A stretch of DNA of 45,949 nucleotides from a virus, in IMG/VR virus record IMGVR_UViG_3300020020_000067, positions 1 through 45,949 of that record. One strand, given 5' to 3'. Positions 1 through 45,949 of this stretch are shown here, piece by piece (the stretch's first letter is position 1; every line of letters begins with the position of its first letter). A program made the translations under genes and the position numbers. The notes below the pieces were generated by a model, which ran no database searches, had not been told where the DNA came from, and worked only from the letters and a program-made list of their open reading frames with translations.

Positions 1-146
1 TGTTTGTAGATAGCGGTCATATGCCTATTGAAGAAGTGAGCGAGTTGGATAAAATATTAAACGCTGGGCCAAATGGACAAGGCAATAGAGAAAATGGTAA
101 TGGAAAAGTATCCAATAACGGACAAGGAAAAAAATTGTCGCATTGA
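1..146 (+). CDS. Portal protein, C-terminal fragment (gene continues from the other end)
   Basis: Partial gene read from the second base of a codon. Its 47 visible codons, ending at TGA, repeat the C-terminus of the portal gene found at 44488-45948, with two residue differences. The tail is low-complexity and rich in Gly, Asn and Lys, as expected for a disordered portal C-terminus. It is not a separate gene: on a circular map it is the same portal, and the MuF-like gene follows after 38 bp. Confidence 0.85.
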   Translation, partial: FVDSGHMPIEEVSELDKILNAGPNGQGNRENGNGKVSNNGQGKKLSH

Positions 147-147
147 A
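1..147. repeat. Left copy of 147-bp terminal repeat
   Basis: These bases match the last 147 bases of the window apart from two substitutions (T here versus G at offset 20, A versus C at offset 142). The repeat lies inside the 3' end of the portal gene, so the coding sequence runs across the ends and the map is circular or terminally redundant. Both differences change an amino acid (His versus Gln, His versus Pro). It is either overlap of a circular assembly with population variation, or a direct terminal repeat. Confidence 0.9.
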
Positions 148-1775: not shown

Positions 1776-2978
1776 ATGGAAATTAAAGAAGCGGTAGACG
1801 ATCTTAAAGAATCACTAAAAGTATTTAAGAACGATATTACCGAAAAAGGCAAAAAGCAGATCAGCGAGTTCAAAGAAGAATTTGAAAAAGAAAACGCTGA
1901 ACTGAAAGAAAAAGTAAAAGAACTAAACAAGGTAGTCGCTGAAAAAGGCGGTACACTTGAAGACATCCAGGAAGAAGTAAAGAACCTTAAAGCAAAAGGC
2001 GGACGTTTTTCCGGTGGTGTTCAGCAGTTCAAAGGGCTAAGAGAAACAATAGCCAACGAAATGGCTAAAGCAATCGGCGAGGCTAAAGAAGATATCATGC
2101 AATCAGCAGCCGGTTCGCTGATGAAACCTAAAGAGATTAAAACAGTAGCAAATATAGCTTCTGCTAATCTTACGGTGGATAATTTCATTTCTTATCTTGA
2201 TTGGAGACCGGGTATGGAGCCTACGGGTCAATTCCATTTCCGTAACATGGTAAGGACTGTGCTTTCTGAAACTGATTTTGTTCAATACCCAAGAGCTAAC
2301 TCACCAATAGGTGAAGGTTCTTTTGGTAGACAAACAGAAGCAGCTACTAAAGCACAAGTTGATCGTGACTACACAATGCAAACATTGACCTTGCTTCCTA
2401 TGGCGGCTTTCGCTGTAGCATCAAGGCAGTCATTGAGAAACATTCTGTTTTTACAGAGCTGGCTTCCTGAATCAATGATGAATCAAATGGAGGAGTCAGA
2501 AGATACGCATTTTGCAAATTCACTTGTAGCAGCAGCAACAGGATCTACTTCAACAACCGGGTTTACCGGCACTCCGAATGTAGCTGATAAGCTTGTTTAC
2601 TACATTAAGAATTTGATTGCGGCTAAATTCAATCCTAATGGTATTGCTTGCGATCCCAACGTTTGGGCAAATCTTATTTTGCTCCGTCCGGGTACAGCAG
2701 GTGAGACTTATTCAGGCCCTCCGGTGGTATCAATAGATCAGAATGGTACTACAAGAGTTCTTGGCCGTCCTATCTATCCGGTAAACTGGTTGACAGGTAA
2801 CAGGGTGTTAGTCGGTGATTGGACAAAAGCAGCTATTGTACAAAGTGAAGGTTTGAGATTGCGTCAAAGTGATTCTCATGCTTCATTGTTCACATCAAAC
2901 GAAATTGCGTTCCTTCTTGAAAGAACTGAAGGTCTTGCAATCTTCCGTCCTGATGCGTTCAGTACAACTACAGTTTAA
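1776..2978 (+). CDS. Major capsid protein (HK97 fold) with N-terminal delta/scaffold domain
   Basis: A 400-residue protein. Residues 1 to about 75 are Lys/Glu-rich with heptad-like spacing, a predicted coiled coil equivalent to the HK97 delta domain that scaffolds the prohead and is then cleaved. The remainder is a Gly/Ala/Thr-rich globular region with the features of HK97-type capsid subunits, including a late 'LLRPGTAGETYSGPP' segment and the 'RVLVGDW' and 'EIAFLLERTEGLAIFRPDAF' C-terminal strands. The leader 'ataaaaacaATG' is A-rich with no Shine-Dalgarno, typical of Bacteroidota. A hairpin terminator follows immediately, which would enrich capsid mRNA relative to downstream genes. Confidence 0.9.
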   Translation: MEIKEAVDDLKESLKVFKNDITEKGKKQISEFKEEFEKENAELKEKVKELNKVVAEKGGTLEDIQEEVKNLKAKGGRFSGGVQQFKGLRETIANEMAKAIGEAKEDIMQSAAGSLMKPKEIKTVANIASANLTVDNFISYLDWRPGMEPTGQFHFRNMVRTVLSETDFVQYPRANSPIGEGSFGRQTEAATKAQVDRDYTMQTLTLLPMAAFAVASRQSLRNILFLQSWLPESMMNQMEESEDTHFANSLVAAATGSTSTTGFTGTPNVADKLVYYIKNLIAAKFNPNGIACDPNVWANLILLRPGTAGETYSGPPVVSIDQNGTTRVLGRPIYPVNWLTGNRVLVGDWTKAAIVQSEGLRLRQSDSHASLFTSNEIAFLLERTEGLAIFRPDAFSTTTV

Positions 2979-2983
2979 TTAAC

Positions 2984-3015
2984 AGGGGTGACCCCGTAAG
3001 GTCATCCCTTCTTTT
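2984..3015 (+). terminator. Intrinsic terminator after the capsid gene
   Basis: A 10-bp stem (aggggtgacc with ggtcatccct, one G-U pair), a 6-nt loop (ccgtaa), then a T-rich run (tctttt). It starts six bases after the capsid stop codon. It probably acts as a partial terminator, because the remaining morphogenesis genes continue on the same strand with no obvious new promoter. Confidence 0.75.
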
Positions 3016-3019
3016 AAGT

Positions 3020-3619
3020 ATGAGTTATATATTTTCAGTAGACGGCGATTATGTGAATTTCAATGGAGGTGGAAATATGCACCGGCTTCATAGCGATTCT
3101 AATTGCATTGCATGGCACTTTGACCAAACAGGGGATTTATTCTTTGATGTGTATGACCAAGAGTATGTGGTTAAGGCAGAGAATATAGCGACTGTGGTTA
3201 TTGATGGAGTTCCTTTATCGGCAGCTTCAGATTTTCCAGATGCGATAGTTGCAATATTTCCGGGGTTAGGTGGCGGAGCTTCTCCGGGTTCATCGTATTT
3301 GGTTTATACGGCTTTGTTAACACAGGATGGAACAAATGCACCAACAGCAACAATACTCCAAAACACAATCGGAGCAATAGTATGGACAAGAGCAGTAGCA
3401 GGAAGCTATGTCGGAACACTAACAGGAGCTTTCCCGGCTGAAAAAACATACTACATAATAACACCAAATAAAGACTTCGAACAGGCGCAAATAGTAATGG
3501 AGCAAAGCGGACAAGGGTTCCCTAACTCCGTAAACATATCAACATACGCAGGAGGAGGAGGGGCAGGACAAGACGGAAATATGTTCCAAACACCAATAGA
3601 AATAAGAGTATATCCATAA
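3020..3619 (+). CDS. Putative virion-associated protein, unknown function
   Basis: A 199-residue protein not assigned to a family. The first ~70 residues ('YVNFNGGGNMHRLHSDSNCIAW...') look like a small beta domain. The rest is Gly/Ala/Thr-rich with aromatic strands and a Gly-rich C-terminus (GGGGAGQDGN), a composition common in phage decoration or fibre proteins. It is the first gene after the capsid terminator, and its stop overlaps the start of the first glycosyltransferase (TAATG). A capsid decoration protein is a reasonable guess from position and composition only. Confidence 0.6.
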   Translation: MSYIFSVDGDYVNFNGGGNMHRLHSDSNCIAWHFDQTGDLFFDVYDQEYVVKAENIATVVIDGVPLSAASDFPDAIVAIFPGLGGGASPGSSYLVYTALLTQDGTNAPTATILQNTIGAIVWTRAVAGSYVGTLTGAFPAEKTYYIITPNKDFEQAQIVMEQSGQGFPNSVNISTYAGGGGAGQDGNMFQTPIEIRVYP

Positions 3620-4272
3620 TGAAAAAACTTTGTATAACTATTAATGATTGGCCGATAGCAGAGGCAGAATTTAACCGGGTAGGGTTAGAGGTTACGCCTT
3701 TTAAAGCAATCGTAGAAGATAACAGGGTTTTAGGGTTTAATAAATCCGTTTACGCTTGTATGGAGTTGTGCAGAAAGGCCGATATACTACAAGATGACAA
3801 AGGAATGATTTGGGATTGGGTTGAACACTATGAGGACTTATTGCTATTTGAAGATGATGTAAAATTTGATGGTGAGCTAAGATTTGATTTTCCCGAAGAT
3901 GCTTTAACGGTTCATTTGGGAGCGAATATAATCGGTTCTGATACTATGAATTGGCAGATGCCTACTAACAGTACACCGATGGGCTATGCAAGGTTACATA
4001 ACTGCTGGCAGAGTCATGCAACCTGGTATAGTGCAGAGTGTGTAAAGTTTATAGTAGAGAATTTCAAGTATGTGACCGATGAATATAAAACTGAAGGTTG
4101 TCAAATTTTTGACGAATGGTTAAGAGTAAATGTTTTTCCTATGGGAAGGAGTTATGTAGTTAATCCAATGGTGGCTTATCAAAGACCCCGATGGAGTGAG
4201 ATTTGGAATAGGGAAAGTGATTATACGGGGGCGCACATACAAGGGAACAGATGGCTTAAAGATAATCTATGA
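3619..4272 (+). CDS. Glycosyltransferase family 25-like protein
   Basis: A 217-residue protein resembling GT25 (LPS galactosyltransferase-like) enzymes. After an N-terminal strand comes 'LGFNKSVYACMELCRKA', matching the family's 'G..lSh..a...a' helix, then 'LLLFEDDV' with the acidic EDD metal/nucleotide-sugar motif at residues 78-80. It would transfer a sugar from an activated donor; acceptor unknown. It opens a compact cassette of sugar-transfer and methyltransferase genes linked by ATGA or TAATG overlaps, placed unusually between capsid and connector genes. Specificity cannot be read from sequence. Confidence 0.7.
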   Translation: MKKLCITINDWPIAEAEFNRVGLEVTPFKAIVEDNRVLGFNKSVYACMELCRKADILQDDKGMIWDWVEHYEDLLLFEDDVKFDGELRFDFPEDALTVHLGANIIGSDTMNWQMPTNSTPMGYARLHNCWQSHATWYSAECVKFIVENFKYVTDEYKTEGCQIFDEWLRVNVFPMGRSYVVNPMVAYQRPRWSEIWNRESDYTGAHIQGNRWLKDNL

Positions 4273-4382
4273 AGAATTTATTAAATGATCCAGTTTTTAC
4301 TTTTTTGCTTGGCCTTCTTATCGGGGTTATTGTTGGAGGTATAGCAACCGAGATCCAAAATTGGGCAAGAAATAACTTATGA
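4269..4382 (+). CDS. Small single-pass membrane protein (37 aa)
   Basis: A short gene with ATGA overlaps at both ends (ATG 4269 over the upstream TGA; its TGA at 4380-4382 over the next ATG at 4379), which is strong evidence that it is translated. The product has a short polar start, one hydrophobic helix of about 20 residues rich in Leu, Gly, Ile and Val (about residues 8-27), and a polar tail ending ARNNL. Function unknown. In this setting it could anchor or assist the neighbouring glycosyltransferases at the membrane. Confidence 0.65.
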   Translation: MKNLLNDPVFTFLLGLLIGVIVGGIATEIQNWARNNL

Positions 4383-5083
4383 TCGCATTAGTTAGCTATG
4401 CCTCTAATAATATGTATATATCACAAGAAAGACTTGTGGTTAGTTCTTTGAAGTTTGGGGTTGAAAAAACATTTACCTACGGTGTAAGAGATATAGATCC
4501 TTTATTCTATTCGATCAATAAAAAGACATTAGAACAAGAAAGAGGGGCGGGTTATTGGCTTTGGAAACCTTATGTAGTTAATAAAGCACTTCATTCTGGT
4601 TATTTGAACGATGGTGATATTTTGATTTATAGTGATGCAGGGGTTGAGATAATTAATGATGTGAAGCACTTGATTGAGAAAATGGATCAGGATATTCTAT
4701 TTTTTACTAACGGATTTCGTCAGGTTGAATGGTGCAAGGGTAATGTGTTAAGTTCTATTCTTGGCTCATGGGCTAAATACGAAAACGAAAAACAAGTTCA
4801 GGCGAGTGTGATAGTGATGAAAATAGGTGATAATGTAAGAAGTTTTATGGCTGAATGGTTGGCATGGTCACAGATACCGGGATTCATTGATGATTCACCT
4901 TCTGAAGGGAACTACCCAACATTCGCAGAACACAGGCACGATCAGGCGATTTTAACCTGTTTACAAATTAAATACGGTTATAAGCTTCATTGGTGGCCGA
5001 CAAAATATTCAGATCACTTACCCAGAACGGATAGTTACCCGGTCATGTTCGATCATCACAGAAGGAGGAATGGAGAATGGTAA
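4379..5083 (+). CDS. Putative GT-A type glycosyltransferase
   Basis: A 234-residue protein. The N-terminus 'MIALVSYASNNMY' is a typical first beta strand of a GT-A fold, followed by 'GAGYWLWKPYVVNKAL' (57-72) and 'LNDGDILIYSDAGVEI' (76-91). The 'GxGYWxWKP...DGDILIYxDAG' pattern is shared by a group of bacterial and phage glycosyltransferase-like proteins in which the Asp of DAG stands in for the DxD metal site. The C-terminal half contains 'RHDQAILTCL', resembling the 'DQ..l' element of related sugar transferases. Donor and acceptor are unknown. Confidence 0.65.
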   Translation: MIALVSYASNNMYISQERLVVSSLKFGVEKTFTYGVRDIDPLFYSINKKTLEQERGAGYWLWKPYVVNKALHSGYLNDGDILIYSDAGVEIINDVKHLIEKMDQDILFFTNGFRQVEWCKGNVLSSILGSWAKYENEKQVQASVIVMKIGDNVRSFMAEWLAWSQIPGFIDDSPSEGNYPTFAEHRHDQAILTCLQIKYGYKLHWWPTKYSDHLPRTDSYPVMFDHHRRRNGEW

Positions 5084-5250
5084 AGAGAATTTTAATATTT
5101 CTGGCAATACTATCCGTGTTCGCCTTGCTTATAATTGTTATACGAGGACATTCAAGGATGGCACTTTTGGTATTAGTGGTTATGTGTTCAATATTGTTTT
5201 TATATGCGGTGTGGTTTGCGGCGGGGGTAATAAAAGATGCACTATGGTAG
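5077..5250 (+). CDS. Small two-helix membrane protein (57 aa)
   Basis: A hidden gene in a frame different from its larger neighbours. It starts at ATG 5077, preceded by 'gaaggagg' (a rare recognisable Shine-Dalgarno-like sequence here), overlaps the end of the glycosyltransferase gene, and ends at TAG 5248-5250, overlapping the next gene's ATG at 5244. The product has two strongly hydrophobic segments (about residues 4-21 and 27-45) separated by a short basic turn (IRGHSR). Both overlaps and the hydrophobic pattern argue that this frame is used, not an N-terminal extension of the methyltransferase. Function unknown. Confidence 0.65.
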   Translation: MVKRILIFLAILSVFALLIIVIRGHSRMALLVLVVMCSILFLYAVWFAAGVIKDALW

Positions 5251-5783
5251 AGTTAGGAGACCAAACGGAATGGGTAGAAAAGAAATTAGAGTATTTAAGA
5301 TACGAATATGATCTTAAACCTACTGACTATGTAATTGATATAGGAAGTTACAGGAGAGAGTGGGCAGATGAGATAAAAAAGAAGTTCGGTTGTGAAGTGG
5401 AGTGTTTTGAGGCTTTGGATAATCGGGCGGCATGGACTTATGATGGTGAATTAGAAATAGGTGGGGTGTTTTTATACAGTTCAATATTTACCGATGAAGG
5501 AAAAAGGAAAGTTAAGTGTGAGGATATAGCGAAGTATTTAGATAGAGAGGTGGCACTATTGAAGATAAACATTGAAGGCGGGGAGTATGAGTTACTTAGT
5601 CATATTATTTACAAAGGATTGCATAAGAACATTAAAAATATTCAAGTGCAGTTTCATAAGGTTGAGGGTTTGTTGTGGGAAGTGAGGTATAGTTCTATTT
5701 GTAGGCAACTAATGAAAACGCATGAACTAACATGGCAATATCCCTTCGTTTGGGAGAATTGGTCACTTAAAATTCCAGAATGA
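5244..5783 (+). CDS. FkbM-like SAM-dependent methyltransferase
   Basis: A 179-residue protein starting at ATG 5244. A longer in-frame reading from 5070 exists but overlaps a membrane-protein gene and has no family-like N-terminus, so I reject it. SAM-binding motif I is 'DYVIDIGSYRREWADEI' (28-44). An acidic strand 'VECFEAL' (52-58) and the FkbM-type 'LLKINIEGGEYELL' (105-118) follow. Such enzymes methylate sugar hydroxyls in surface polysaccharides. The neighbouring glycosyltransferases fit a role in capping or modifying a glycan. It overlaps the next gene (ATGA). Confidence 0.72.
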   Translation: MVELGDQTEWVEKKLEYLRYEYDLKPTDYVIDIGSYRREWADEIKKKFGCEVECFEALDNRAAWTYDGELEIGGVFLYSSIFTDEGKRKVKCEDIAKYLDREVALLKINIEGGEYELLSHIIYKGLHKNIKNIQVQFHKVEGLLWEVRYSSICRQLMKTHELTWQYPFVWENWSLKIPE

Positions 5784-6322
5784 TTGAGTTTGTAGAAAAA
5801 TATAGTAAGAATATTTATTCGCAGAATGGCGAAGACGGGATTATAGAAGAATGTCTTAAACGAATGAAGATAGAGATTGGTTCTTGTTGTGAGTTCGGGG
5901 CGGCTGATGGTTATTTCTGTTCTAACACAAGAGCCTTAATTGAGAAGGGTTGGAATTTCACAATGCTCGAAGCAAGCAACGGGCAGTTTGTAACTCCTGA
6001 AAATGTAAATGTGTTAGTCCCTGATTGTGATGTTTTAAGTATTGATATAGATGGGAATGATTATGCGGTTTGGAAAGCGTACAAGCACAGACCAAAGATT
6101 GTAGTAATAGAAATTAATAGTTCGTTAGACCCGCAGAAGGATTTCTTTACACCTGAACAGGGATGTAATTATTCAATGATGATGAGATTAGGTTGGGATA
6201 AAGACTATTTTCTTTTATGTCATACTGGTAACATGATTTTTATAGACAGACAATATTTTGAACTATTCCCTGACTATTCCTATGGGATTACAGACAGATT
6301 TGATAAAAGTTGGTTATGCTAA
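5780..6322 (+). CDS. FkbM-family-like methyltransferase, second copy
   Basis: A 180-residue protein. It begins with a 'YSQNGEDGII' element (13-22), followed by 'CCEFGAADGYFCSNT' (36-50) as the SAM-binding Gly-rich loop, 'FTMLEAS' as the acidic strand and 'VLSIDIDGNDYAVWKA' (about 85-100). This combination (SQNGEDG, FGAxDG, NT, DIDGND) is typical of a group of FkbM-related proteins in polysaccharide clusters. It is not a close duplicate of the preceding gene. Probably an O-methyltransferase acting on a sugar; substrate unknown. It overlaps the fucosyltransferase gene by seven bases. Confidence 0.65.
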   Translation: MIEFVEKYSKNIYSQNGEDGIIEECLKRMKIEIGSCCEFGAADGYFCSNTRALIEKGWNFTMLEASNGQFVTPENVNVLVPDCDVLSIDIDGNDYAVWKAYKHRPKIVVIEINSSLDPQKDFFTPEQGCNYSMMMRLGWDKDYFLLCHTGNMIFIDRQYFELFPDYSYGITDRFDKSWLC

Positions 6323-7089
6323 CAAGTACAGCCATAGGGACAGGAGGATTGGGAAGATTCGGAAACCAATTATTCACCATTGCAGGAGTAATAGGTATAG
6401 CCGACAAAAACAACCAGGAGTTCGGTTTTCCTGAATGGAAGAATTATGATAACGCTCTTTTTGGCGGTGAGGTAACAGATTTTAGTTCACATTTTGTGAA
6501 CCCCTTACCTGATTTAAGAGGAATAGATCCGAGAAACTTTATTGAGTACGGATATTTCTGGGGTTATAGGGATGTGATGTTACAGATGGGTAATTGGAGT
6601 ATAAACGCTCATTTACAGAGTCCGAAGTTCTTTGAGCATAGTATAAATAAGGTTAGGCATTATTTTAAAATGAAAGATGAACCGGAGCAGAATGATTATG
6701 TAGCGATTCATTATAGAGCGGGTGATTATATAGACGATCCTAATGCCTATCATCCGAGATGCAGTAAAGAATATTATGAAGAAGCGATGGCAATGTTCCC
6801 TGATTCAAAGTTCTTATTGTTTAGTGATAATGTAAATAGTTGGTTTGAAATGATGGGTTCACTTGCGAAGGATGTTTATGTAATGGGGTATAAAACATAC
6901 TTAGAAGATTTTAGGAAGATGAAAAAATGCAAATCGTTCATAATAGCCAATTCTTCCTTTAGTGCAATGGCAGCAATATTAGCCGACCATCCTGAGAAGA
7001 AAGTTATTGCGCCTAAAAGATGGTTTGGAACACAAGCGGGAGACATGAATTGGAACGATGGTTATGATAAAAATTGGATAGTTATATGA
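6316..7089 (+). CDS. Alpha-1,2-fucosyltransferase-like glycosyltransferase (GT11)
   Basis: A 257-residue protein from ATG 6316; a TTG two codons earlier is possible. GT11 marks are clear: an N-terminal 'GGLGRFGNQLF' loop, the donor-binding 'HYRAGDY' (132-138, the family's HxRxGDY), and the later 'FLLFSDN' and 'FIIANSSFSAMAAILA' motifs that bind GDP-fucose in this fold. It would add L-fucose, or a related sugar, in alpha-1,2 linkage. No GDP-fucose synthesis genes are present, so the donor must come from the host, and many Bacteroidota make GDP-fucose. This is the best-defined enzyme of the cassette. Confidence 0.82.
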   Translation: MLTSTAIGTGGLGRFGNQLFTIAGVIGIADKNNQEFGFPEWKNYDNALFGGEVTDFSSHFVNPLPDLRGIDPRNFIEYGYFWGYRDVMLQMGNWSINAHLQSPKFFEHSINKVRHYFKMKDEPEQNDYVAIHYRAGDYIDDPNAYHPRCSKEYYEEAMAMFPDSKFLLFSDNVNSWFEMMGSLAKDVYVMGYKTYLEDFRKMKKCKSFIIANSSFSAMAAILADHPEKKVIAPKRWFGTQAGDMNWNDGYDKNWIVI

Positions 7090-7247
7090 TAACACAGACT
7101 TATGAAAACAAGATGGTGTCCTCTTTGGAGGAAAGAATGAAGGGTAAGGAAGGAATTGAAGTTCTTAGGGAGGCGATAAAAATAATGAAAGAGGATTATG
7201 AGAAGATTAAAAAAGAAGTAAAAAACCAACAAGAGGACGAAGATTGA
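7086..7247 (+). CDS. Small charged helical protein (53 aa)
   Basis: Starts at ATG 7086 over the fucosyltransferase TGA (ATGA) and ends at TGA 7245-7247, overlapping the TTG start of the next gene. The product is almost all charged and helix-favouring, rich in Lys and Glu with regular hydrophobic spacing (LEERMKGKEGIEVLREAIKI), suggesting a short coiled coil. No family recognised. Overlaps on both sides argue it is a genuine member of the operon, perhaps a partner of an adjacent enzyme. Confidence 0.55.
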   Translation: MITQTYENKMVSSLEERMKGKEGIEVLREAIKIMKEDYEKIKKEVKNQQEDED

Positions 7248-8269
7248 GAATACTGTACTCTATACATCTGTACCCGCCCATCCATAATTGTGGAGGTGAA
7301 GCGTATATACATAACCTTAACAAGTACCTTATTAAACAAGGTCACGAAGTTAGGGTAATGCTTCAACGTGCGCCACAGTTCAACTACCGTGTTCCTTACG
7401 AGTGGGAAGGTGTTTATGTAATGGGTAATAAAGACTGCTTAGATGCTTACCGTTGGGCCGATGTTTTAGTCACTCATTTGGATTTTACTCATTTCACAGT
7501 CACTTTAGGAAGAGATATAGGAAAGCCGGTGGTTCATATAGTTCACAATCATCATTTGTACGAATCAATTGAAAGGGCTGCGAATGTAAACGTAGTCTAT
7601 AATTCAGAATGGATAAATGAAAAACTAAAATATAAACATCCTTCGGTAGTGGTTCCTCCGGCGGTTGACTATGACAGATACAACGTAAATGATAACCCAG
7701 AAGGTAACGAATATGTTACCCTAATAAACCTAAACACTAACAAAGGGGGAAGAATTTTACAAAAGTTGGCTAAAGTGTTCCCAAACAAGAAATTCTTAGC
7801 GGTTAAAGGAAGTTATGATAAACAAATAACCGATCAACCAGATAATGTAAAAGTAATTGATAACACTCCTGATATTCTTCCTATTTACAAACAGACAAGG
7901 CTTTTAATTATGCCTTCTCAATATGAAAGCTGGGGAATGACAGCAACGGAGGCAATGTGTTCAGGGATTCCGGTTATCTGTTGCCCTACGCCTGGTTTAA
8001 AAGAGAACTGCGATTATGCGGGAAACTATATAGACCCAAGAAAAGACGATTTATTCGATGATAACGGGAATGTTTTAGATGACACAGATGAATATGATAT
8101 TTCTTCTTTGGTAGAGATGATTAAGAAATTCGATGACAAGAAATTCTACAAAGAAAGAAGCGAATTATCAAGACAGAGGGCAAAAGAACACGACCCTTTA
8201 GAGTATTGTAAACGATTTGAAAACTTTTTATACCAATCACAATCCGTAAACCTTAAACAGTATATATAA
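7244..8269 (+). CDS. GT4-family glycosyltransferase
   Basis: A 341-residue GT-B enzyme. The N-terminus 'MRILYSIHLYPPIHNCGGEAYIHNL' is the classic opening of GT4 enzymes, including the Gly-rich acceptor loop, and fixes the start at TTG 7244, since no ATG lies nearby. The C-terminal donor domain has 'LLIMPSQYESWGMTATEAMCSGIPVI' (220-245), where Glu228 and Glu236 form the E-x7-E motif. It retains the donor sugar's anomeric configuration. It ends the cassette: the next gene's ATG overlaps its stop (TAATG). Confidence 0.85.
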   Translation: MRILYSIHLYPPIHNCGGEAYIHNLNKYLIKQGHEVRVMLQRAPQFNYRVPYEWEGVYVMGNKDCLDAYRWADVLVTHLDFTHFTVTLGRDIGKPVVHIVHNHHLYESIERAANVNVVYNSEWINEKLKYKHPSVVVPPAVDYDRYNVNDNPEGNEYVTLINLNTNKGGRILQKLAKVFPNKKFLAVKGSYDKQITDQPDNVKVIDNTPDILPIYKQTRLLIMPSQYESWGMTATEAMCSGIPVICCPTPGLKENCDYAGNYIDPRKDDLFDDNGNVLDDTDEYDISSLVEMIKKFDDKKFYKERSELSRQRAKEHDPLEYCKRFENFLYQSQSVNLKQYI

Positions 8270-8700
8270 TGGCGACATTCACAAAATTTCAACAGTTCGT
8301 AGAAGACCTTGCAAAAGGTGTTCACAATTTCACATCAGATTCCACTTGTTCGGTAACGGTGGGGTTATCTAATGCGGCAAATGCTCCTTCAGTTTCGGCT
8401 GATGCGGTCATAGGCGATATTACTACAATAGCTTATACAAATTTATCGAGTAGAGTAGTAACGGGTGTTACAGCAGAACACACAACAGGAACGGTAATTT
8501 TTACCGCTACTGATTTGGTTATAACTGCAAGCGGTGGGCCTGCGGCTCCTTTTAGGTATGTGATTTTATATAACGACGATCCAACTTCTCCGGCAGATCC
8601 TTTAATAAGCTATGCTGATTATGGAAGTGATTTAACGTTAGCAGATGGGGAAACATTTACTATCAACTTCGGTTCAAACGGTTTTGGAACATTAGCATAA
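8269..8700 (+). CDS. Putative virion surface/decoration protein, common phage family
   Basis: A 143-residue protein starting 'MATFTKFQQFVEDLAKGVHNF', then Thr/Ser/Val-rich strands, 'FTASGGPAAPFRYVILYNDDP'-like core residues and a final 'LTLADGETFTINFGSNG'. This arrangement (start 'MATF.KF..FVE.LA.GVHN', middle 'ASGG...FRY..LYND', end 'LADGETFTI.F') is familiar from many siphovirus structural modules and predicts a beta sandwich. It is probably virion associated. It overlaps the GT4 gene (TAATG) and could be a glycan acceptor, which is inference from adjacency only. Confidence 0.6.
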   Translation: MATFTKFQQFVEDLAKGVHNFTSDSTCSVTVGLSNAANAPSVSADAVIGDITTIAYTNLSSRVVTGVTAEHTTGTVIFTATDLVITASGGPAAPFRYVILYNDDPTSPADPLISYADYGSDLTLADGETFTINFGSNGFGTLA

Positions 8701-8703
8701 ACT

Positions 8704-10830
8704 ATGGCTACTCCTGTTTTTTGTTGTGGTTTTGAGTGCGGAAATGGTCACTGGGCATTATCGGCAGGACTTTCGTTTGATACTACAATCAAACGAAACG
8801 GGAGTAGATCATTAAAGGGTCTTAATGTTGGGGATGCTACTGCTGCAACAGCCGGTATTACTTTTAGTAATAATATTTTAGTTGGTAGGTTTTATGTTTA
8901 TATAGCGACTATGCCAGCAGCAGATTCTGTTTACTTATGCAGAACAGGAGCTAATATATTGGGTGTACTTCTAAAGTCAGATAGTAAGATTTACTCACAT
9001 GGAGCAACAGCTCAGGGATCAACACCTGTAACGGTAACGACTAATACATGGTACAGAATTGATTTCAAGTTTAACATGAGCGGTAATCCGTGGCTGTGCG
9101 ATGTTCTTGTTGATGGTGTTAGTTGCGGCCAAGCAAATAGAGCTGTTGCCGCAAATACGTTTACTCAATTTTTATTAAACGAAAACGACGGTGGCGGTAA
9201 TCACGAAATTTATTATGATGATTTAATACTATCGACAACATCAGCAGATTATCCTTTAGGAGCAGGGAAAGTAGAACACTTCATTCCAACTTCAGACGGT
9301 ACTCATAATATAGCAGGGACAGGAGACTTCCAAAGAACAACTACAGGAACAGATATTTTAAACGCTACAACCACAGCTTTTCAATTAGTAGATGACGTTC
9401 CTTTGGAAAGCGGATCGGGGACTGATTGGATAAATATGCTTGCCCCTCCAAACGCTACAGATTACGTAGAGTGTGTTTTCGGCCCGGCTTCGGGTATTTC
9501 AACTCCTACAGTAGCACCAAGAGCCGTTGAGGTTATTGCTGGCATTCGTCAATCGGCTACGGGTACGGGTAATATGGAGATCCGTTTGAATGATAACGGA
9601 ACAATGGGGACTGTTTACACAGCTACAACGGTAGCGGGTGTGACTACGATAGCCTATAAGAGGGCGCATTTTGCCGATCCGCCAAGTGCAGCAAGTGTAT
9701 GGAATGTAAGTAACACAGGTAATAATGGTGACTTTAGAGATTTAAGAGTAAGGTTTGGTTCACCGGGGGCTTTAGATGTAAACCCTGACCAATATTTTAC
9801 GGGGATAATGATTGAGGCGGAATTTCCTGCTGCGGGTGGGACTATTGATGTTGATCCGGCCACTTATACTTTTACAACCGAGGCCGCAGGACTACAAGCC
9901 CAAAGGAAGTTAGATGTAACTAACGCTGTTTATACTTTTACGGGTGCTGATGTAACTTTTAACAAAGGATATAATTTCCCCGTAGTAGAAGCGGTTTATT
10001 CTTTCACTCCGGCTGATGTGACTTTCCAAGTAACAAGAATGTTAATTGTCACCCCTGCGAGTTATTCGTTCACTACTCAGGATGCAGGTATTCAGGCACA
10101 GAGAAAATTAAACGTTGATGAAGCGACTTACACATTCACTACTGCGGACGCTGGTTTAACGGCTCAAAGGAAACTTGACGTAACAAATGCTGTTTACTCT
10201 TTTACACCACAAGATGCAGGTTTATTAAGAGGGTTAAGATTTAATGTAGACCCGGCTTCTTACAGTTTTTCAACAGCAGACGCTTCGATATTAGCACAAA
10301 GAACCCTTTCAGGAACAGAGGCGGTTTATTTATTTACAACTCAGGATGCGGGTTTAGAATATACACCCGGTTCAGGTGATTATAATTTTGATGTAGATAA
10401 TGCGGTTTATTCTTTTAATACTGCTGATGCGGGATTAACAGTACAAAGGAAGTTGGATGTTGATGCGGCAAATTATTCTTTCGTAACTCAGGATGCCTCT
10501 ATACTTACACAAAGAACACTTTCAGGGACTAACGCTGTTTATGTTTTTACAACCGAGGACGCAAGTTTGCAATACGGCGCAACTACTGTTTTTAGTGTCG
10601 ATCCTGCTGTTTATTCTTTTACCGGGGCAGATGTAAGCCTATTAGCACAAAGGGCAATGATAGTTACCGAGGCCGAATATGATTTTGAAACCCAAGATGC
10701 AGGGTTAGTTTATTCTCTTACGAATAATATAGACTTCCCCGTAATTAGGGCTAAGTATAGATTCAATACTAAAACAGCGCAATTAATAGGGCCTAAAAGA
10801 CCCGGACTTATAAGAATGTACAATGAGTGA
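8704..10830 (+). CDS. Large repeat-containing virion protein with LamG-like N-terminus
   Basis: A 708-residue protein in two parts. Residues 1 to about 180 look like a concanavalin/LamG-type beta sandwich (repeated 'W-x-R-I-D-F-K-F' and 'EIYYDDLIL' strands), and residues 190-375 are a further beta-rich region. From residue 381 there are 14 imperfect repeats of about 22 residues with the core 'VDxAxYSFTTxDAGLxAQR'. Such Ser/Thr-rich beta repeats occur in fibrous phage surface proteins. It lies between the glycosyltransferase cassette and the neck genes, which suggests a fibre or head appendage. Its stop overlaps the connector gene by 8 bp. Confidence 0.65.
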   Translation: MATPVFCCGFECGNGHWALSAGLSFDTTIKRNGSRSLKGLNVGDATAATAGITFSNNILVGRFYVYIATMPAADSVYLCRTGANILGVLLKSDSKIYSHGATAQGSTPVTVTTNTWYRIDFKFNMSGNPWLCDVLVDGVSCGQANRAVAANTFTQFLLNENDGGGNHEIYYDDLILSTTSADYPLGAGKVEHFIPTSDGTHNIAGTGDFQRTTTGTDILNATTTAFQLVDDVPLESGSGTDWINMLAPPNATDYVECVFGPASGISTPTVAPRAVEVIAGIRQSATGTGNMEIRLNDNGTMGTVYTATTVAGVTTIAYKRAHFADPPSAASVWNVSNTGNNGDFRDLRVRFGSPGALDVNPDQYFTGIMIEAEFPAAGGTIDVDPATYTFTTEAAGLQAQRKLDVTNAVYTFTGADVTFNKGYNFPVVEAVYSFTPADVTFQVTRMLIVTPASYSFTTQDAGIQAQRKLNVDEATYTFTTADAGLTAQRKLDVTNAVYSFTPQDAGLLRGLRFNVDPASYSFSTADASILAQRTLSGTEAVYLFTTQDAGLEYTPGSGDYNFDVDNAVYSFNTADAGLTVQRKLDVDAANYSFVTQDASILTQRTLSGTNAVYVFTTEDASLQYGATTVFSVDPAVYSFTGADVSLLAQRAMIVTEAEYDFETQDAGLVYSLTNNIDFPVIRAKYRFNTKTAQLIGPKRPGLIRMYNE
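9844..10797 (+). repeat. 14 imperfect repeats of ~22 codons within the 708-aa gene
   Basis: In-frame tandem units encode the core 'VDPAxYSFTTxDAGLxAQRK'. Most are 22 codons long; units 8, 11 and 13 carry insertions of a few residues. Several units share near-identical DNA (for example the 'ccaaggaagttagatgtaac' type boundary), while others have diverged, suggesting growth by unequal recombination. Repeat number may vary between relatives. Confidence 0.8.
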
Positions 10831-38967: not shown

Positions 38968-39192
38968 CTATGCTATCTTTGTTTCAACTTCTTCTTCCAG
39001 TATCTCCTGATCACTTAATCCTGTTTCCTCTCGTATTACCTGTAAAGCCTTTGCGGTGGTCAAGGTTCCGTTTTCTTTGTTTTTCCGTATCAACCTATCA
39101 ATCCATACTTCGGTGAATCCTAAAGCAAGAGCTAGCTTTAAAACGGTTTCTCTGGCACTAAGGGAGGCTATTGCTTTTTCTGTGAGTTTCAT
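38968..39192 (-). CDS. Small DNA-binding switch protein (Cro-like position)
   Basis: A 74-residue protein from ATG 39192; an apparent longer reading would run through the divergent promoter region and part of the repressor gene, so I reject it. It is helical: 'KLTEKAIASLSARETVLKLALALGFTEVWIDRLIRKNKENGTLTTAKALQVIREETGLSDQEIL', with an HTH-like turn around 'LALGFTEVWIDRLIRKN'. As the first early gene, divergent from an XRE repressor, it occupies the Cro position. Confidence 0.6.
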   Translation of the reverse strand: MKLTEKAIASLSARETVLKLALALGFTEVWIDRLIRKNKENGTLTTAKALQVIREETGLSDQEILEEEVETKIA

Positions 39193-39286
39193 TATATTCG
39201 TTTTACGTTTGTCCGAACAAATATACATACGGGAAAACGTTAAAACCAAATTTTCCGCAATATATTTTAAAACAAATTTTGAAACA
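39193..39286. promoter_or_regulatory. Divergent promoter/operator of the genetic switch
   Basis: For the - strand: TATATTTG (-7, 39225-39218) and TTG (-33, 39249-39247) separated by 21 bp match the Bacteroidota promoter (TTG-N17-23-TAnnTTTG). For the + strand: TACGTTTG at 39204-39211 fits a -7 box, with no clear -33. Both boxes overlap the dyad tttgtccgaacaaa (39208-39221), a likely operator. A second pair, ttaaaaccaaatttt (39240-39254) and ttaaaacaaatttt (39267-39280), forms direct repeats near the repressor start. Confidence 0.65.
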
Positions 39287-39667
39287 ATGTTGCATCTAGC
39301 TAAAAACATTAAGTGGATCAGGCTTTTAAGCGGAAAGAAGCAAACCGAATTTGCCGTAATATTAGGCATCACAGATGATCAACTTTACACTTATGAGAGT
39401 GGGAAGGCAAAACCAAACAGCGTAGTAAAGGGAAAAATTGCAACAATCGCAGGGATAACTATTGAAGATTTAGAAAACACGGATATAAAAAAGCAAACAG
39501 TACAGGTCATAAACCCAGACACAAAAAAAGTGGAATTTACACTCGCCCCCAATGGAGCGAATCAGCATGAAAAGGAATTGAAACACTTACAGGAAATGTT
39601 AGCAGAGAAGGAAAAGCAAATTAAGTTGTTAACTCAATTATTAGAAAAGACTTCTAAAAAAAGCTGA
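39287..39667 (+). CDS. XRE-family transcriptional repressor (CI-like)
   Basis: A 126-residue protein from ATG 39287; longer in-frame readings would extend through the divergent promoter. The N-terminal HTH 'LAKNIKWIRLLSGKKQTEFAVILGITDDQLYTYESGKAKPNSVVKGKIATIAGITIEDLEN' (4-64) is classic XRE/HTH_3. The C-terminal ~40 residues form a Leu-rich coiled coil ('LKHLQEMLAEKEKQIKLLTQLLEKT') for dimerisation. There is no peptidase domain, so induction would not be by RecA self-cleavage. It resembles small repressors common in Bacteroidota phages and bacteria, and is divergent from the early operon. Confidence 0.82.
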   Translation: MLHLAKNIKWIRLLSGKKQTEFAVILGITDDQLYTYESGKAKPNSVVKGKIATIAGITIEDLENTDIKKQTVQVINPDTKKVEFTLAPNGANQHEKELKHLQEMLAEKEKQIKLLTQLLEKTSKKS

Positions 39668-44487: not shown

Positions 44488-45948
44488 ATGGGATTACTAG
44501 AAAGACTTTTTAATAGTATAAGAAGAATTGATAAGAGCGATAGTTCTTTGACATCTATAGTAAGACAATTCGGTGGGATGCCTGTTTATCCAGATCCTAA
44601 AGTAGAACGATTCTTAGAGGCATATACCGAAAACGCTGCTGTTTATTCAATAGTGAATTTAGCAGCAAGGAAGTTTTCTTTTATTCCCCGGTATGTAGTT
44701 AAAGAAGATAATGAAGAACAGGCTAAATCATATAAAAGACTATTAAGGCAAGGGCAATTCCTAAGAGCCAATAAGGTAAAAACAAAAGCTTACTCCACTC
44801 CGCAGGGGAAGGCGGGGCCTGAATCATTAGAGGCCCTACTTGCAAGACCTAACCCAAGTTATGGTCAGGATTTGTTTTATTACTCGATCTATGTTTCATA
44901 TAAAATATGCGGAGAAGCTTTTGTTTGGTTGAACAGGGGTGATTTAGGGCAATATAAAAATCCCGATGGGGGAGTTAATGATGAGGCAATAGATAAACTT
45001 CCTGTCTTAGAAATGTATTGGCTTCCGGCTGACCTGGTAACTATCATTCCAGATCCATTAGATGTATGGGGAATCATGGGTTATGAGTTAGACATTGATG
45101 GTAAGAGGGCTTTTGTAAGAAAGAACGATGTTATTCATTGGAAAACATTTAATCCCTTCTTTGACGCAACAACAAGAGAACATTTAAGAGGCTTACTTCC
45201 TCCGATAAATAAAATACTCCAACAAGAGGAAGATTCAACAGATGCAGCCGTAGCAATGTATCAACATGGGGGCGCAAGAGGTGTGTTATTTGAGAAGACG
45301 TTGGGAATGAAGATGACTGTTGAGCAGAAGAGTAAGATTGAGGAGATAACCGGAAAGAGGATAAACAATAAGGATCTAAAGAGTGCAATTGCTAATCTAC
45401 AGGGTGATTGGGGCTTTATAGATATAGGTAAGGATTCGGTTGATATGCAACTCTTAGAAGGTAACGATAAGGCTTTTGCAAAGCTGTGTCATGCTTTCGG
45501 TGTTCCTCCTGGTTTATTCTTAGTAGATCAGACTTACGAGAACCAAAGAAGTAACAGGAAGAGAATGTTAAGTGAATTAATCATGCCCGATTGCGCTTCT
45601 TTCAATGATGAGATGAATAGGTTGTTGCTTCCTTCTTTCGGGTTAAAGGGACAAAAGATAGAACCGGATTATTCAGAATTACCAGAGATGCAGGAGGACA
45701 TGAAGGACATGATTACAACTCTTAAAGATGCTCCTGTAACTAAGAATGAATTTAGAGAGGCAATAGGGTATGATCCTTTACCTATTGAAGAAATGGATAA
45801 GGTGTTTGTAGATAGCGGTCAGATGCCTATTGAAGAAGTGAGCGAGTTGGATAAAATATTAAACGCTGGGCCAAATGGACAAGGCAATAGAGAAAATGGT
45901 AATGGAAAAGTATCCAATAACGGACAAGGAAAAAAATTGTCGCCTTGA
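44488..45948 (+). CDS. Portal protein (HK97 type), near-complete copy
   Basis: A 486-residue protein with the HK97 portal pattern: N-terminal 'YTENAAVYSIVNLAARKFSFIPRYVV', 'LLARPNPSYGQDLFYYSIYVSYKICGEAFVWLNRG' (about 115-150), 'DVIHWKTFNPFFDATTREHLRGLLPPINKILQQEEDSTDAAVAMYQHGGARGVL', 'FGVPPGLFLVDQTYENQRSNRKRMLSELIMPDCASFNDEMNRLLLPSFG', and 'APVTKNEFREAIGYDPLP'. It forms the dodecameric entry vertex for DNA. Its last 147 bases recur at the start of the window, so here the gene reaches its TGA (45946-45948) one base before the window ends. Confidence 0.93.
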   Translation: MGLLERLFNSIRRIDKSDSSLTSIVRQFGGMPVYPDPKVERFLEAYTENAAVYSIVNLAARKFSFIPRYVVKEDNEEQAKSYKRLLRQGQFLRANKVKTKAYSTPQGKAGPESLEALLARPNPSYGQDLFYYSIYVSYKICGEAFVWLNRGDLGQYKNPDGGVNDEAIDKLPVLEMYWLPADLVTIIPDPLDVWGIMGYELDIDGKRAFVRKNDVIHWKTFNPFFDATTREHLRGLLPPINKILQQEEDSTDAAVAMYQHGGARGVLFEKTLGMKMTVEQKSKIEEITGKRINNKDLKSAIANLQGDWGFIDIGKDSVDMQLLEGNDKAFAKLCHAFGVPPGLFLVDQTYENQRSNRKRMLSELIMPDCASFNDEMNRLLLPSFGLKGQKIEPDYSELPEMQEDMKDMITTLKDAPVTKNEFREAIGYDPLPIEEMDKVFVDSGQMPIEEVSELDKILNAGPNGQGNRENGNGKVSNNGQGKKLSP

Positions 45949-45949
45949 A
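45803..45949. repeat. Right copy of 147-bp terminal repeat
   Basis: Matches positions 1-147 except for two bases (G at 45822, C at 45944). See the left copy; together they imply a map of 45,802 unique bases. Confidence 0.9.

What the first reader, a model, noticed from the sequence alone, without database searches (positions are those of the whole stretch)
3619..8269. Glycosyltransferase/methyltransferase cassette embedded in the head-assembly operon
Between the capsid terminator and the connector gene lie a GT25-like enzyme, a second GT-A-like enzyme, two FkbM-like methyltransferases, a GT11 fucosyltransferase and a GT4 enzyme, plus three small linking genes, all chained by stop-start overlaps. 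Sugar-transfer genes in phages usually sit in accessory regions. Here they are expressed with structural genes, next to two Thr/Ser-rich beta proteins that could carry glycans. Two readings: virion glycosylation (a methylated, fucosylated glycan on a decoration protein or fibre), or modification of the host surface late in infection. Motifs and overlaps are seen; the purpose is inference.
Basis: partly seen in the sequence, partly recalled or inferred. Interest (0 to 1): 0.82.

Follow-up and report, generated by a model that had tools for sequence, protein, structure and literature searches.

The report
Phage head-operon sugar-transfer gene cassette
This uncultured bacterial virus carries six sugar-transferring and methylating enzymes between its capsid and head-tail connector genes, and over a hundred relatives keep one of these enzymes at the same spot while swapping the others, which suggests that the virus decorates its own particle with a variable, methylated, probably fucose-containing sugar chain.

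Summary
In detail: six enzyme genes and three small genes, chained by stop-start overlaps, lie between the capsid terminator (2984-3009) and the connector (10823). They are GT25-like, a Pfam-less GT-A enzyme, two FkbM-type methyltransferases, GT11 and GT4. The cassette is not random cargo. In 79 deduplicated IMG/VR loci spanning capsid to connector, the GT4 is there every time, with no change of order or strand. A capsid-only search gave 64/64. A sister lineage related to Cellulophaga phage phi10:1 shares the gene order but has 0/70. The enzymes evolve under purifying selection like structural genes. The GT4 is constant; the other enzymes turn over fast. Two phages with identical capsid proteins differ in the slot by a clean replacement of a GT25-like gene by an FkbM methyltransferase. 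One relative adds a GDP-L-fucose synthase. Best explanation: cytoplasmic glycosylation of a virion protein, as in mycobacteriophage Corndog-type phages, with the GT4 as the conserved step. Acceptor and sugars are not shown. The two Ser/Thr-rich neighbours are unlikely to be the main acceptors, because nearly all relatives lack them. New variant of a known kind, in a lineage with no isolate found.

The parts
1776..2978 (+). major capsid protein (HK97-type), anchor of the locus
   Evidence: Phage_capsid PF05065 8.7e-20; phrog_10 2.1e-22
2984..3009 (+). intrinsic terminator after the capsid gene
   Evidence: 10-bp stem plus T tail; terminator found after MCP in 111/119 relatives and in 75/79 of the sister lineage, at most 1 per gene class elsewhere
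3020..3619 (+). unknown 199-aa protein after the terminator (putative head accessory), present in few relatives
   Evidence: no Pfam/PHROG hit; homologues in L003 and L009
3619..4272 (+). gene A: GT25-like glycosyltransferase with invariant EDD motif
4269..4382 (+). 37-aa single-transmembrane linking ORF
   Evidence: hydropathy 2.41; 4-nt overlaps on both sides (sequence)
4379..5083 (+). gene B: GT-A-fold glycosyltransferase with no named family
   Evidence: no Pfam hit; model pLDDT 89.7; Foldseek to GT-A enzymes
5077..5250 (+). 57-aa two-helix membrane linking ORF
   Evidence: hydropathy 3.07
5247..5783 (+). gene M1: FkbM-type methyltransferase (motif KINIEG.EY invariant)
   Evidence: PF05050 1.1e-4; TIGR01444 5.4e-5; alignment A3
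5780..6322 (+). gene M2: FkbM-like methyltransferase
   Evidence: PF05050 weak, 5 of 11 orthologues; alignment A4
6316..7089 (+). gene F: GT11 fucosyltransferase-like enzyme, H-x-R-x-G-D-Y motif invariant (listed ORF starts at TTG 6310)
   Evidence: PF01531 1.4e-16; phrog_2644 1.7e-34; alignment A5
7086..7247 (+). 53-aa soluble charged linking ORF
   Evidence: sequence; 4-nt overlaps on both sides
7244..8269 (+). gene G4: GT4 glycosyltransferase, E-x7-E motif invariant; the universal member of the cassette
   Evidence: PF00534 6.2e-13; 79/79 and 64/64 relatives; alignment A6
8269..8700 (+). Ser/Thr-rich 143-aa protein (24% S+T), phrog_644, optional
   Evidence: recognised otherwise only in L004, L011 and L188
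8704..10830 (+). 708-aa repeat protein (18% S+T), optional
   Evidence: otherwise only in L004 and L011
10823..11359 (+). head-tail connector/adaptor, right-hand anchor
   Evidence: phrog_442 6.7e-4; conserved position in relatives

Best explanation
The cassette is a virion-glycosylation module built into the head gene cluster of an uncultured, probably Bacteroidota-infecting siphophage-like lineage. Late in infection, soluble enzymes in the cytoplasm put a short glycan on an abundant particle protein, most likely the major capsid protein or the tail tube. Host nucleotide sugars and SAM are the donors. GT4 (G4) does the step that all members share, probably the first transfer to protein; in the window A (GT25-like), B (GT-A) and F (GT11, probably fucose) extend it, and M1 and M2 O-methylate it. 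Related phages change the outer glycan by swapping the enzymes between the capsid terminator and G4. Shown: the enzyme classes (M2 weakly), fixed position, universality of G4, purifying selection, enzyme turnover and allele swaps. Inferred: acceptor, order of steps, sugars, host and benefit to the phage.
For: Fixed place and order: 79/79 deduplicated loci and 64/64 loci found by capsid alone; sister lineage 0/70. G4 is inherited with the head module: tree-distance r 0.85 with the capsid, 0 of 500 permutations as high; r 0.86-0.95 with portal, protease, capsid and connector. dN/dS of all enzymes 0.04-0.11, as for structural genes. Catalytic motifs invariant. Top structural matches of B include enzymes acting on proteins (glycogenin, UGGT, LH3) and the PBCV-1 capsid glycosyltransferase; A's profile hits collagen galactosyltransferase. 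GDP-L-fucose synthase beside F in L089. No lipid-carrier, flippase or polymerase gene was seen among the cassette genes. Enzyme set changes at least 28 times on the capsid tree; capsid-identical phages swap a GT25-like gene for an FkbM gene. Precedent: Cluster O mycobacteriophages carry an O-methyltransferase and three glycosyltransferases inside the structural genes, seen in infected cells and not in virions (PMC4351075), and reported to modify capsid and tail tube (PMC11600133).
Against: No direct evidence of a glycan: no isolate, no mass spectrometry. G4 is no closer to the capsid than to connector or portal in the distance correlations, so the acceptor is not identified. The window has two small transmembrane ORFs in the cassette, which could suggest a membrane substrate; only 8 of 119 relatives have any such ORF of 40 aa or more. 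Lineage-specific conserved Ser/Thr in the capsid protein (T166, S313) may be plain phylogeny.
Confidence: 0.7

Rival explanations
1. The enzymes modify the host surface (lipopolysaccharide, capsule or surface glycoprotein) late in infection, to stop superinfection or the loss of progeny on cell debris.
For: GT4, GT11, FkbM and GT25 families are common in bacterial polysaccharide clusters; distant homologues of B lie in many bacterial genomes, some with GT4- or GT11-like genes nearby. Two small transmembrane ORFs lie in the window's cassette.
Against: No flippase, polymerase or membrane-bound transferase was recognised, and small membrane ORFs are in only 8/119 relatives. No integrase in the window, so lysogenic conversion is unlikely. 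Strict linkage of G4 to the capsid-connector junction is not expected of a surface modifier, which could sit anywhere.
Confidence: 0.15
2. The enzymes hypermodify phage DNA with sugars to resist restriction.
For: Virus-encoded glycosyltransferases that hypermodify DNA are known (reference title cited in PMC12619734).
Against: No thymidylate-synthase-like base hydroxymethylase in the record. Tet/JBP gave no match but that search was uninformative. Late head-module position; collagen-type GT25 relationship.
Confidence: 0.05
3. The slot between capsid terminator and connector is a tolerant landing site that keeps collecting cargo, with no function tied to the particle.
For: HNH endonuclease-like ORFs also enter the region, and the enzyme set changes often.
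Against: G4 is never missing from the slot and never elsewhere in the loci read, its dN/dS is 0.08, and most large ORFs in the slot are glycosyltransferases, methyltransferases or sugar-nucleotide enzymes. The sister lineage with the same junction and terminator has no such genes in 70 loci.
Confidence: 0.05

Closest known systems
Cluster O mycobacteriophages (Corndog): O-methyltransferase gp35, glycosyltransferases gp36-gp38
   Same: Methyltransferase plus glycosyltransferases inside the head gene cluster; enzymes seen in infected cells but not in virions; capsid and tail tube reported glycosylated (PMC4351075, PMC11600133).
   Different: Position is between portal and protease, not between capsid and connector; different host phylum. 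Homology of the enzymes was not compared here. No cassette swap between capsid-identical phages was reported in the text read.
Streptomyces phage TurkishDelight gp20
   Same: GT4 enzyme 32% identical to G4, encoded between the major capsid gene and the major tail gene.
   Different: One 678-aa protein with two GT4-like segments; no GT25, GT11 or FkbM genes annotated beside it; isolated on an actinobacterial host.
Chlorovirus PBCV-1 capsid glycosylation (A064R, A061L, A111/114R)
   Same: Virus-encoded soluble glycosyltransferases and methyltransferases build a fucose-containing, O-methylated capsid glycan; enzyme mutations define antigenic classes (PMC9614988); gene B model resembles A64R domain 1.
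   Different: Eukaryotic algal virus, N-glycan on a capsid protein of another fold; genes scattered, not a capsid-adjacent cassette.
Cellulophaga phage phi10:1 / Flavobacterium phage 11b (nearest isolates by capsid)
   Same: Gene order terL-portal-MuF-protease-capsid-connector; capsid 27-35% identical; capsid terminator shared by the phi10:1-like loci.
   Different: No glycosyltransferase or methyltransferase annotated or recognised between capsid and connector.

Membership tests
Phage-encoded virion glycosylation systems (mycobacteriophage Cluster O type) | Glycosyltransferase genes in the phage, with head-module linkage as in Cluster O | tested here: met
Phage-encoded virion glycosylation systems (mycobacteriophage Cluster O type) | Associated O-methyltransferase | tested here: met
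   M1/M2 FkbM type; other class I SAM methyltransferases in relatives
Phage-encoded virion glycosylation systems (mycobacteriophage Cluster O type) | Covalent glycan on capsid or tail-tube protein | not testable with these tools
   needs virions
GT25 | sequence relationship to Glyco_transf_25 and EDD motif | tested here: met
   4/13 orthologues hit PF01755, best 5.1e-9; EDD invariant; the window copy alone gives no hit
GT11 | PF01531 above cut-off and H-x-R-x-G-D-Y motif | tested here: met
   61 bits against cut-off 23.9; motif invariant in 11 sequences
GT4 | GT-B group 1 domain with E-x7-E | tested here: met
   PF00534 49 bits against cut-off 26.4; motif
GT-A fold (gene B) | fold similarity to solved GT-A enzymes | tested here: met
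   217 PDB matches at E<=0.001, top ones GT-A; TM-scores only 0.4-0.56, so a family is not assigned
FkbM methyltransferase (M1) | PF05050 above cut-off | tested here: met
   22.9 against 22.7 bits, marginal
FkbM methyltransferase (M2) | PF05050 above cut-off | tested here: not met
   18.6 against 22.7 bits; best E among orthologues 0.0012; best called FkbM-like
Serotype-converting glycosylation (gtrABC type) | membrane flippase and bactoprenol-linked transferase | tested here: not met
   no such family among the cassette proteins scanned
DNA glucosylation systems | base hydroxymethylase of thymidylate-synthase type | tested here: not met

The most novel reading that the evidence does not exclude
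In this uncultured lineage a GT4 glycosyltransferase is an obligatory partner of the capsid module, and the slot between capsid terminator and GT4 is a 'phage serotype' locus: phages with the same capsid protein exchange glycosyltransferase and methyltransferase alleles, so the virion glycan varies independently of the capsid and governs how the particle is recognised or decays.
Probability: 0.4. Interest if true: 0.85.

Novelty: new variant of a known kind. Interest (0 to 1): 0.66.

Why it matters
Virion glycosylation in phages rests on a few mycobacteriophages. Here a whole uncultured lineage, probably infecting Bacteroidota, has a sugar transferase as constant as its connector gene, plus a fast-changing set of decorating enzymes. 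That predicts widespread methylated, sometimes fucosylated phage particles in the environments sampled, and gives a natural set of capsid-matched pairs (L345/L346, L348/L377) for asking what a phage glycan is for. It also offers small soluble glycosyltransferases and sugar methyltransferases, including one with no named family (gene B).

Tried and rejected
Random-cargo reading: rejected by fixed position and purifying selection. The two Ser/Thr-rich neighbours as general acceptors: rejected, because they are recognised in only a few relatives and in L011 lie inside the cassette between M1 and M2. Membrane linking genes as an essential part: rejected, 8/119. Acceptor by co-evolution: distance correlations do not single out the capsid. 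Acceptor by lineage-specific residues: only T166 and S313 among Ser/Thr, not convincing. Capsid model too poor (pLDDT 65.7), so not used for surface mapping. PDB profile searches of M1 and F found nothing useful. Bacteroidota promoter pattern not enriched. Isolated phages with gene A: none. Literature searches on head-embedded cassettes in Bacteroidota phages found none; the primary paper on mycobacteriophage virion glycosylation is not held. Tet/JBP search uninformative. One alignment call failed on coordinates.
Full report
WHAT IS THERE. The window is a virus record of 45,949 bases. Its two ends repeat each other over 147 bases with 2 differences, and L002 (about 95% identical DNA) runs across the joint, so it is very likely a complete circular genome of about 45.8 kb. 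The head cluster reads terL-portal (right end), then MuF-protease-capsid (185-2978), a terminator (2984-3009), a 199-aa unknown, the cassette (3619-8269), two Ser/Thr-rich proteins, connector (10823), neck and tail genes. Gene A is GT25-like, B has a GT-A fold but no named family, M1 is FkbM, M2 FkbM-like, F is GT11 and G4 is GT4. Two of the three small linkers are predicted membrane peptides, one is soluble. M1 begins at 5247, not 5070: its orthologues are 175-195 aa and 5077-5250 is a separate small ORF.

IS IT MORE THAN CHANCE. I collected relatives by capsid, by gene B and by G4, then labelled every ORF with profiles built from the family. In the B- and G4-based set plus the first capsid set, 128 deduplicated loci remain, 79 of which span capsid to connector. 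G4 lies between them in 79/79, A in 58, B and F in 50, M2 in 25, M1 in 14. No enzyme lies elsewhere in those loci, none is on the other strand, and the order is never broken; 49 partial loci agree. Loci found by B or G4 are selected for carrying them, though not for where they carry them, so the fairer count is the capsid-only search: 64/64 spanning loci carry G4 in the slot. Phages related to Cellulophaga phage phi10:1 have the same gene order and the same capsid terminator (75/79), but 0/70 spanning loci have any of these enzymes; capsid and connector are mostly separated by 0-2 tiny ORFs. So the cassette went into an existing junction just after the capsid terminator and became fixed in one lineage. 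Each scan keeps only the 80 best matches, so these counts describe relatives near the queries, and ORFs were called mechanically.

SELECTION AND INHERITANCE. Median dN/dS is 0.085 (A), 0.081 (B), 0.037 (M1, 3 pairs), 0.042 (M2, 7 pairs), 0.105 (F) and 0.081 (G4), against 0.089 for capsid and 0.071 for connector. Tree distances of G4 and capsid correlate at r = 0.85 (0 of 500 permutations), and G4 correlates 0.86-0.95 with portal, protease, capsid and connector. G4 is thus inherited as a head-module gene.

VARIABLE PART. Everything between the terminator and G4 turns over. On the capsid tree of 119 distinct phages the enzyme set changes at least 28 times: A 15, M1 6, M2 4, other large ORFs (mostly methyltransferases) 27, B and F 3 each (some of these may be ORF-calling misses). 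The smallest sets are G4 alone (L224), methyltransferase + G4, and A + G4; larger sets add B + F, then M2, then M1. The nested pattern suggests an order of steps, but shared descent could give the same pattern. Slot methyltransferases in relatives are FkbM or other class I families. Other relatives add a GDP-L-fucose synthase (L089, NF047922, 1e-133, below that model's strict cut-off), GT2 (L089, L015), an epimerase (L015) or an MptE-like protein (L067). The clearest case is L345 against L346: capsid proteins 100% identical, DNA aligned through the capsid terminator region (to 9232 in L345) and again from the start of G4 (9799), but between them a GT25-like gene in one and an FkbM methyltransferase in the other; L348/L377 show the same exchange.

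HOW IT LIKELY WORKS. The enzymes are soluble by sequence, their catalytic motifs are invariant, and no lipid-carrier, flippase or polymerase gene was seen beside them. A soluble, late, head-linked set points to cytoplasmic modification of a particle protein using host nucleotide sugars. Because G4 alone suffices in L224 and is never absent, I place it first (inference). F most likely transfers fucose (GT11; fucose synthase in L089). A and B extend, M1 and M2 methylate. The acceptor must be something all members share: capsid or tail tube are the best guesses. The optional Ser/Thr-rich proteins 8269-8700 and 8704-10830 are not, since nearly all relatives lack them. The terminator after the capsid gene (111/119) and the short overlaps downstream suggest that the enzymes are made at the lower level of connector and tail genes; median capsid-to-A spacing is 70 bases.

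COMPARISON. The nearest known arrangement is that of Cluster O mycobacteriophages, whose O-methyltransferase and three glycosyltransferases lie between portal and protease, are seen in infected cells but not in virions (PMC4351075), and are reported to modify capsid and tail tube (PMC11600133). TurkishDelight has a GT4 32% identical to G4 between capsid and major tail genes. PBCV-1 shows a viral methylated, fucose-containing capsid glycan whose enzyme variants form antigenic classes (PMC9614988). Against these, what differs here is the capsid-connector position, universality across a lineage with no isolate found in the phage collection (gene A: none; G4: TurkishDelight only), and allele exchange between capsid-identical phages.

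HOST. Nearest isolates by capsid infect Flavobacterium and Cellulophaga. One cassette-bearing contig sits in a Saprospiraceae assembly (L096). Only 4 of 41 larger plus-strand genes have a Shine-Dalgarno-like site, usual for Bacteroidota (own knowledge). Bacteroidota is therefore likely but not shown; the L096 contig could be mis-binned.

VERDICT. Observation confirmed, interpretation partly supported and sharpened. New variant of a known kind; function inferred.

Noticed in passing
window 1-147 and 45803-45949: Terminal direct repeat, 145/147 identical: the record is very likely a complete circular genome. The two mismatches may be assembly error.
   Followed up: partly
L345:9232-9799 against L346:2594-3181; L348/L377: Clean replacement of a GT25-like gene by an FkbM methyltransferase between phages with identical or nearly identical capsid proteins.
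   Followed up: yes
L341:3664-5368: HNH-endonuclease-like ORF, a GT25-like gene split into two ORFs (132 and 61 aa) and an FkbM-like gene together in one slot: possibly an allele exchange caught in progress.
   Followed up: no
L089:968-3598: Cassette that adds a small unknown protein, a GT2 enzyme and a GDP-L-fucose synthase ahead of the GT11 gene.
   Followed up: partly
L015:7286-12145: Most divergent capsid relative: same slot, same GT4, but with methyltransferase, GT2+DUF5672, epimerase and an unknown 248-aa protein in place of A, B and F.
   Followed up: partly
L011:14959-17207: Homologues of the window's 8704-10830 and 8269-8700 proteins lie inside the cassette between M1 and M2, in the opposite order.
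   Followed up: no
window 8704-10830: C-terminal half is a series of about 22-residue repeats of the type 'AVYTFTTADAGLxAQRKLDVTN'; the N-terminal part looks like a lectin-type beta domain by eye.
   Followed up: no
L178:7945-9981 (Streptomyces phage TurkishDelight gp20): Protein with two GT4-like segments in the head-tail region; both segments align with G4.
   Followed up: partly
Prochlorococcus phage P-TIM68 162217-163616: GT11 and gene-B homologues side by side in a cyanophage at about 162 kb of a 197-kb genome.
   Followed up: no
window 39056-39667: Repressor-like protein (PHROG transcriptional regulator 1e-8) although no integrase was found.
   Followed up: no
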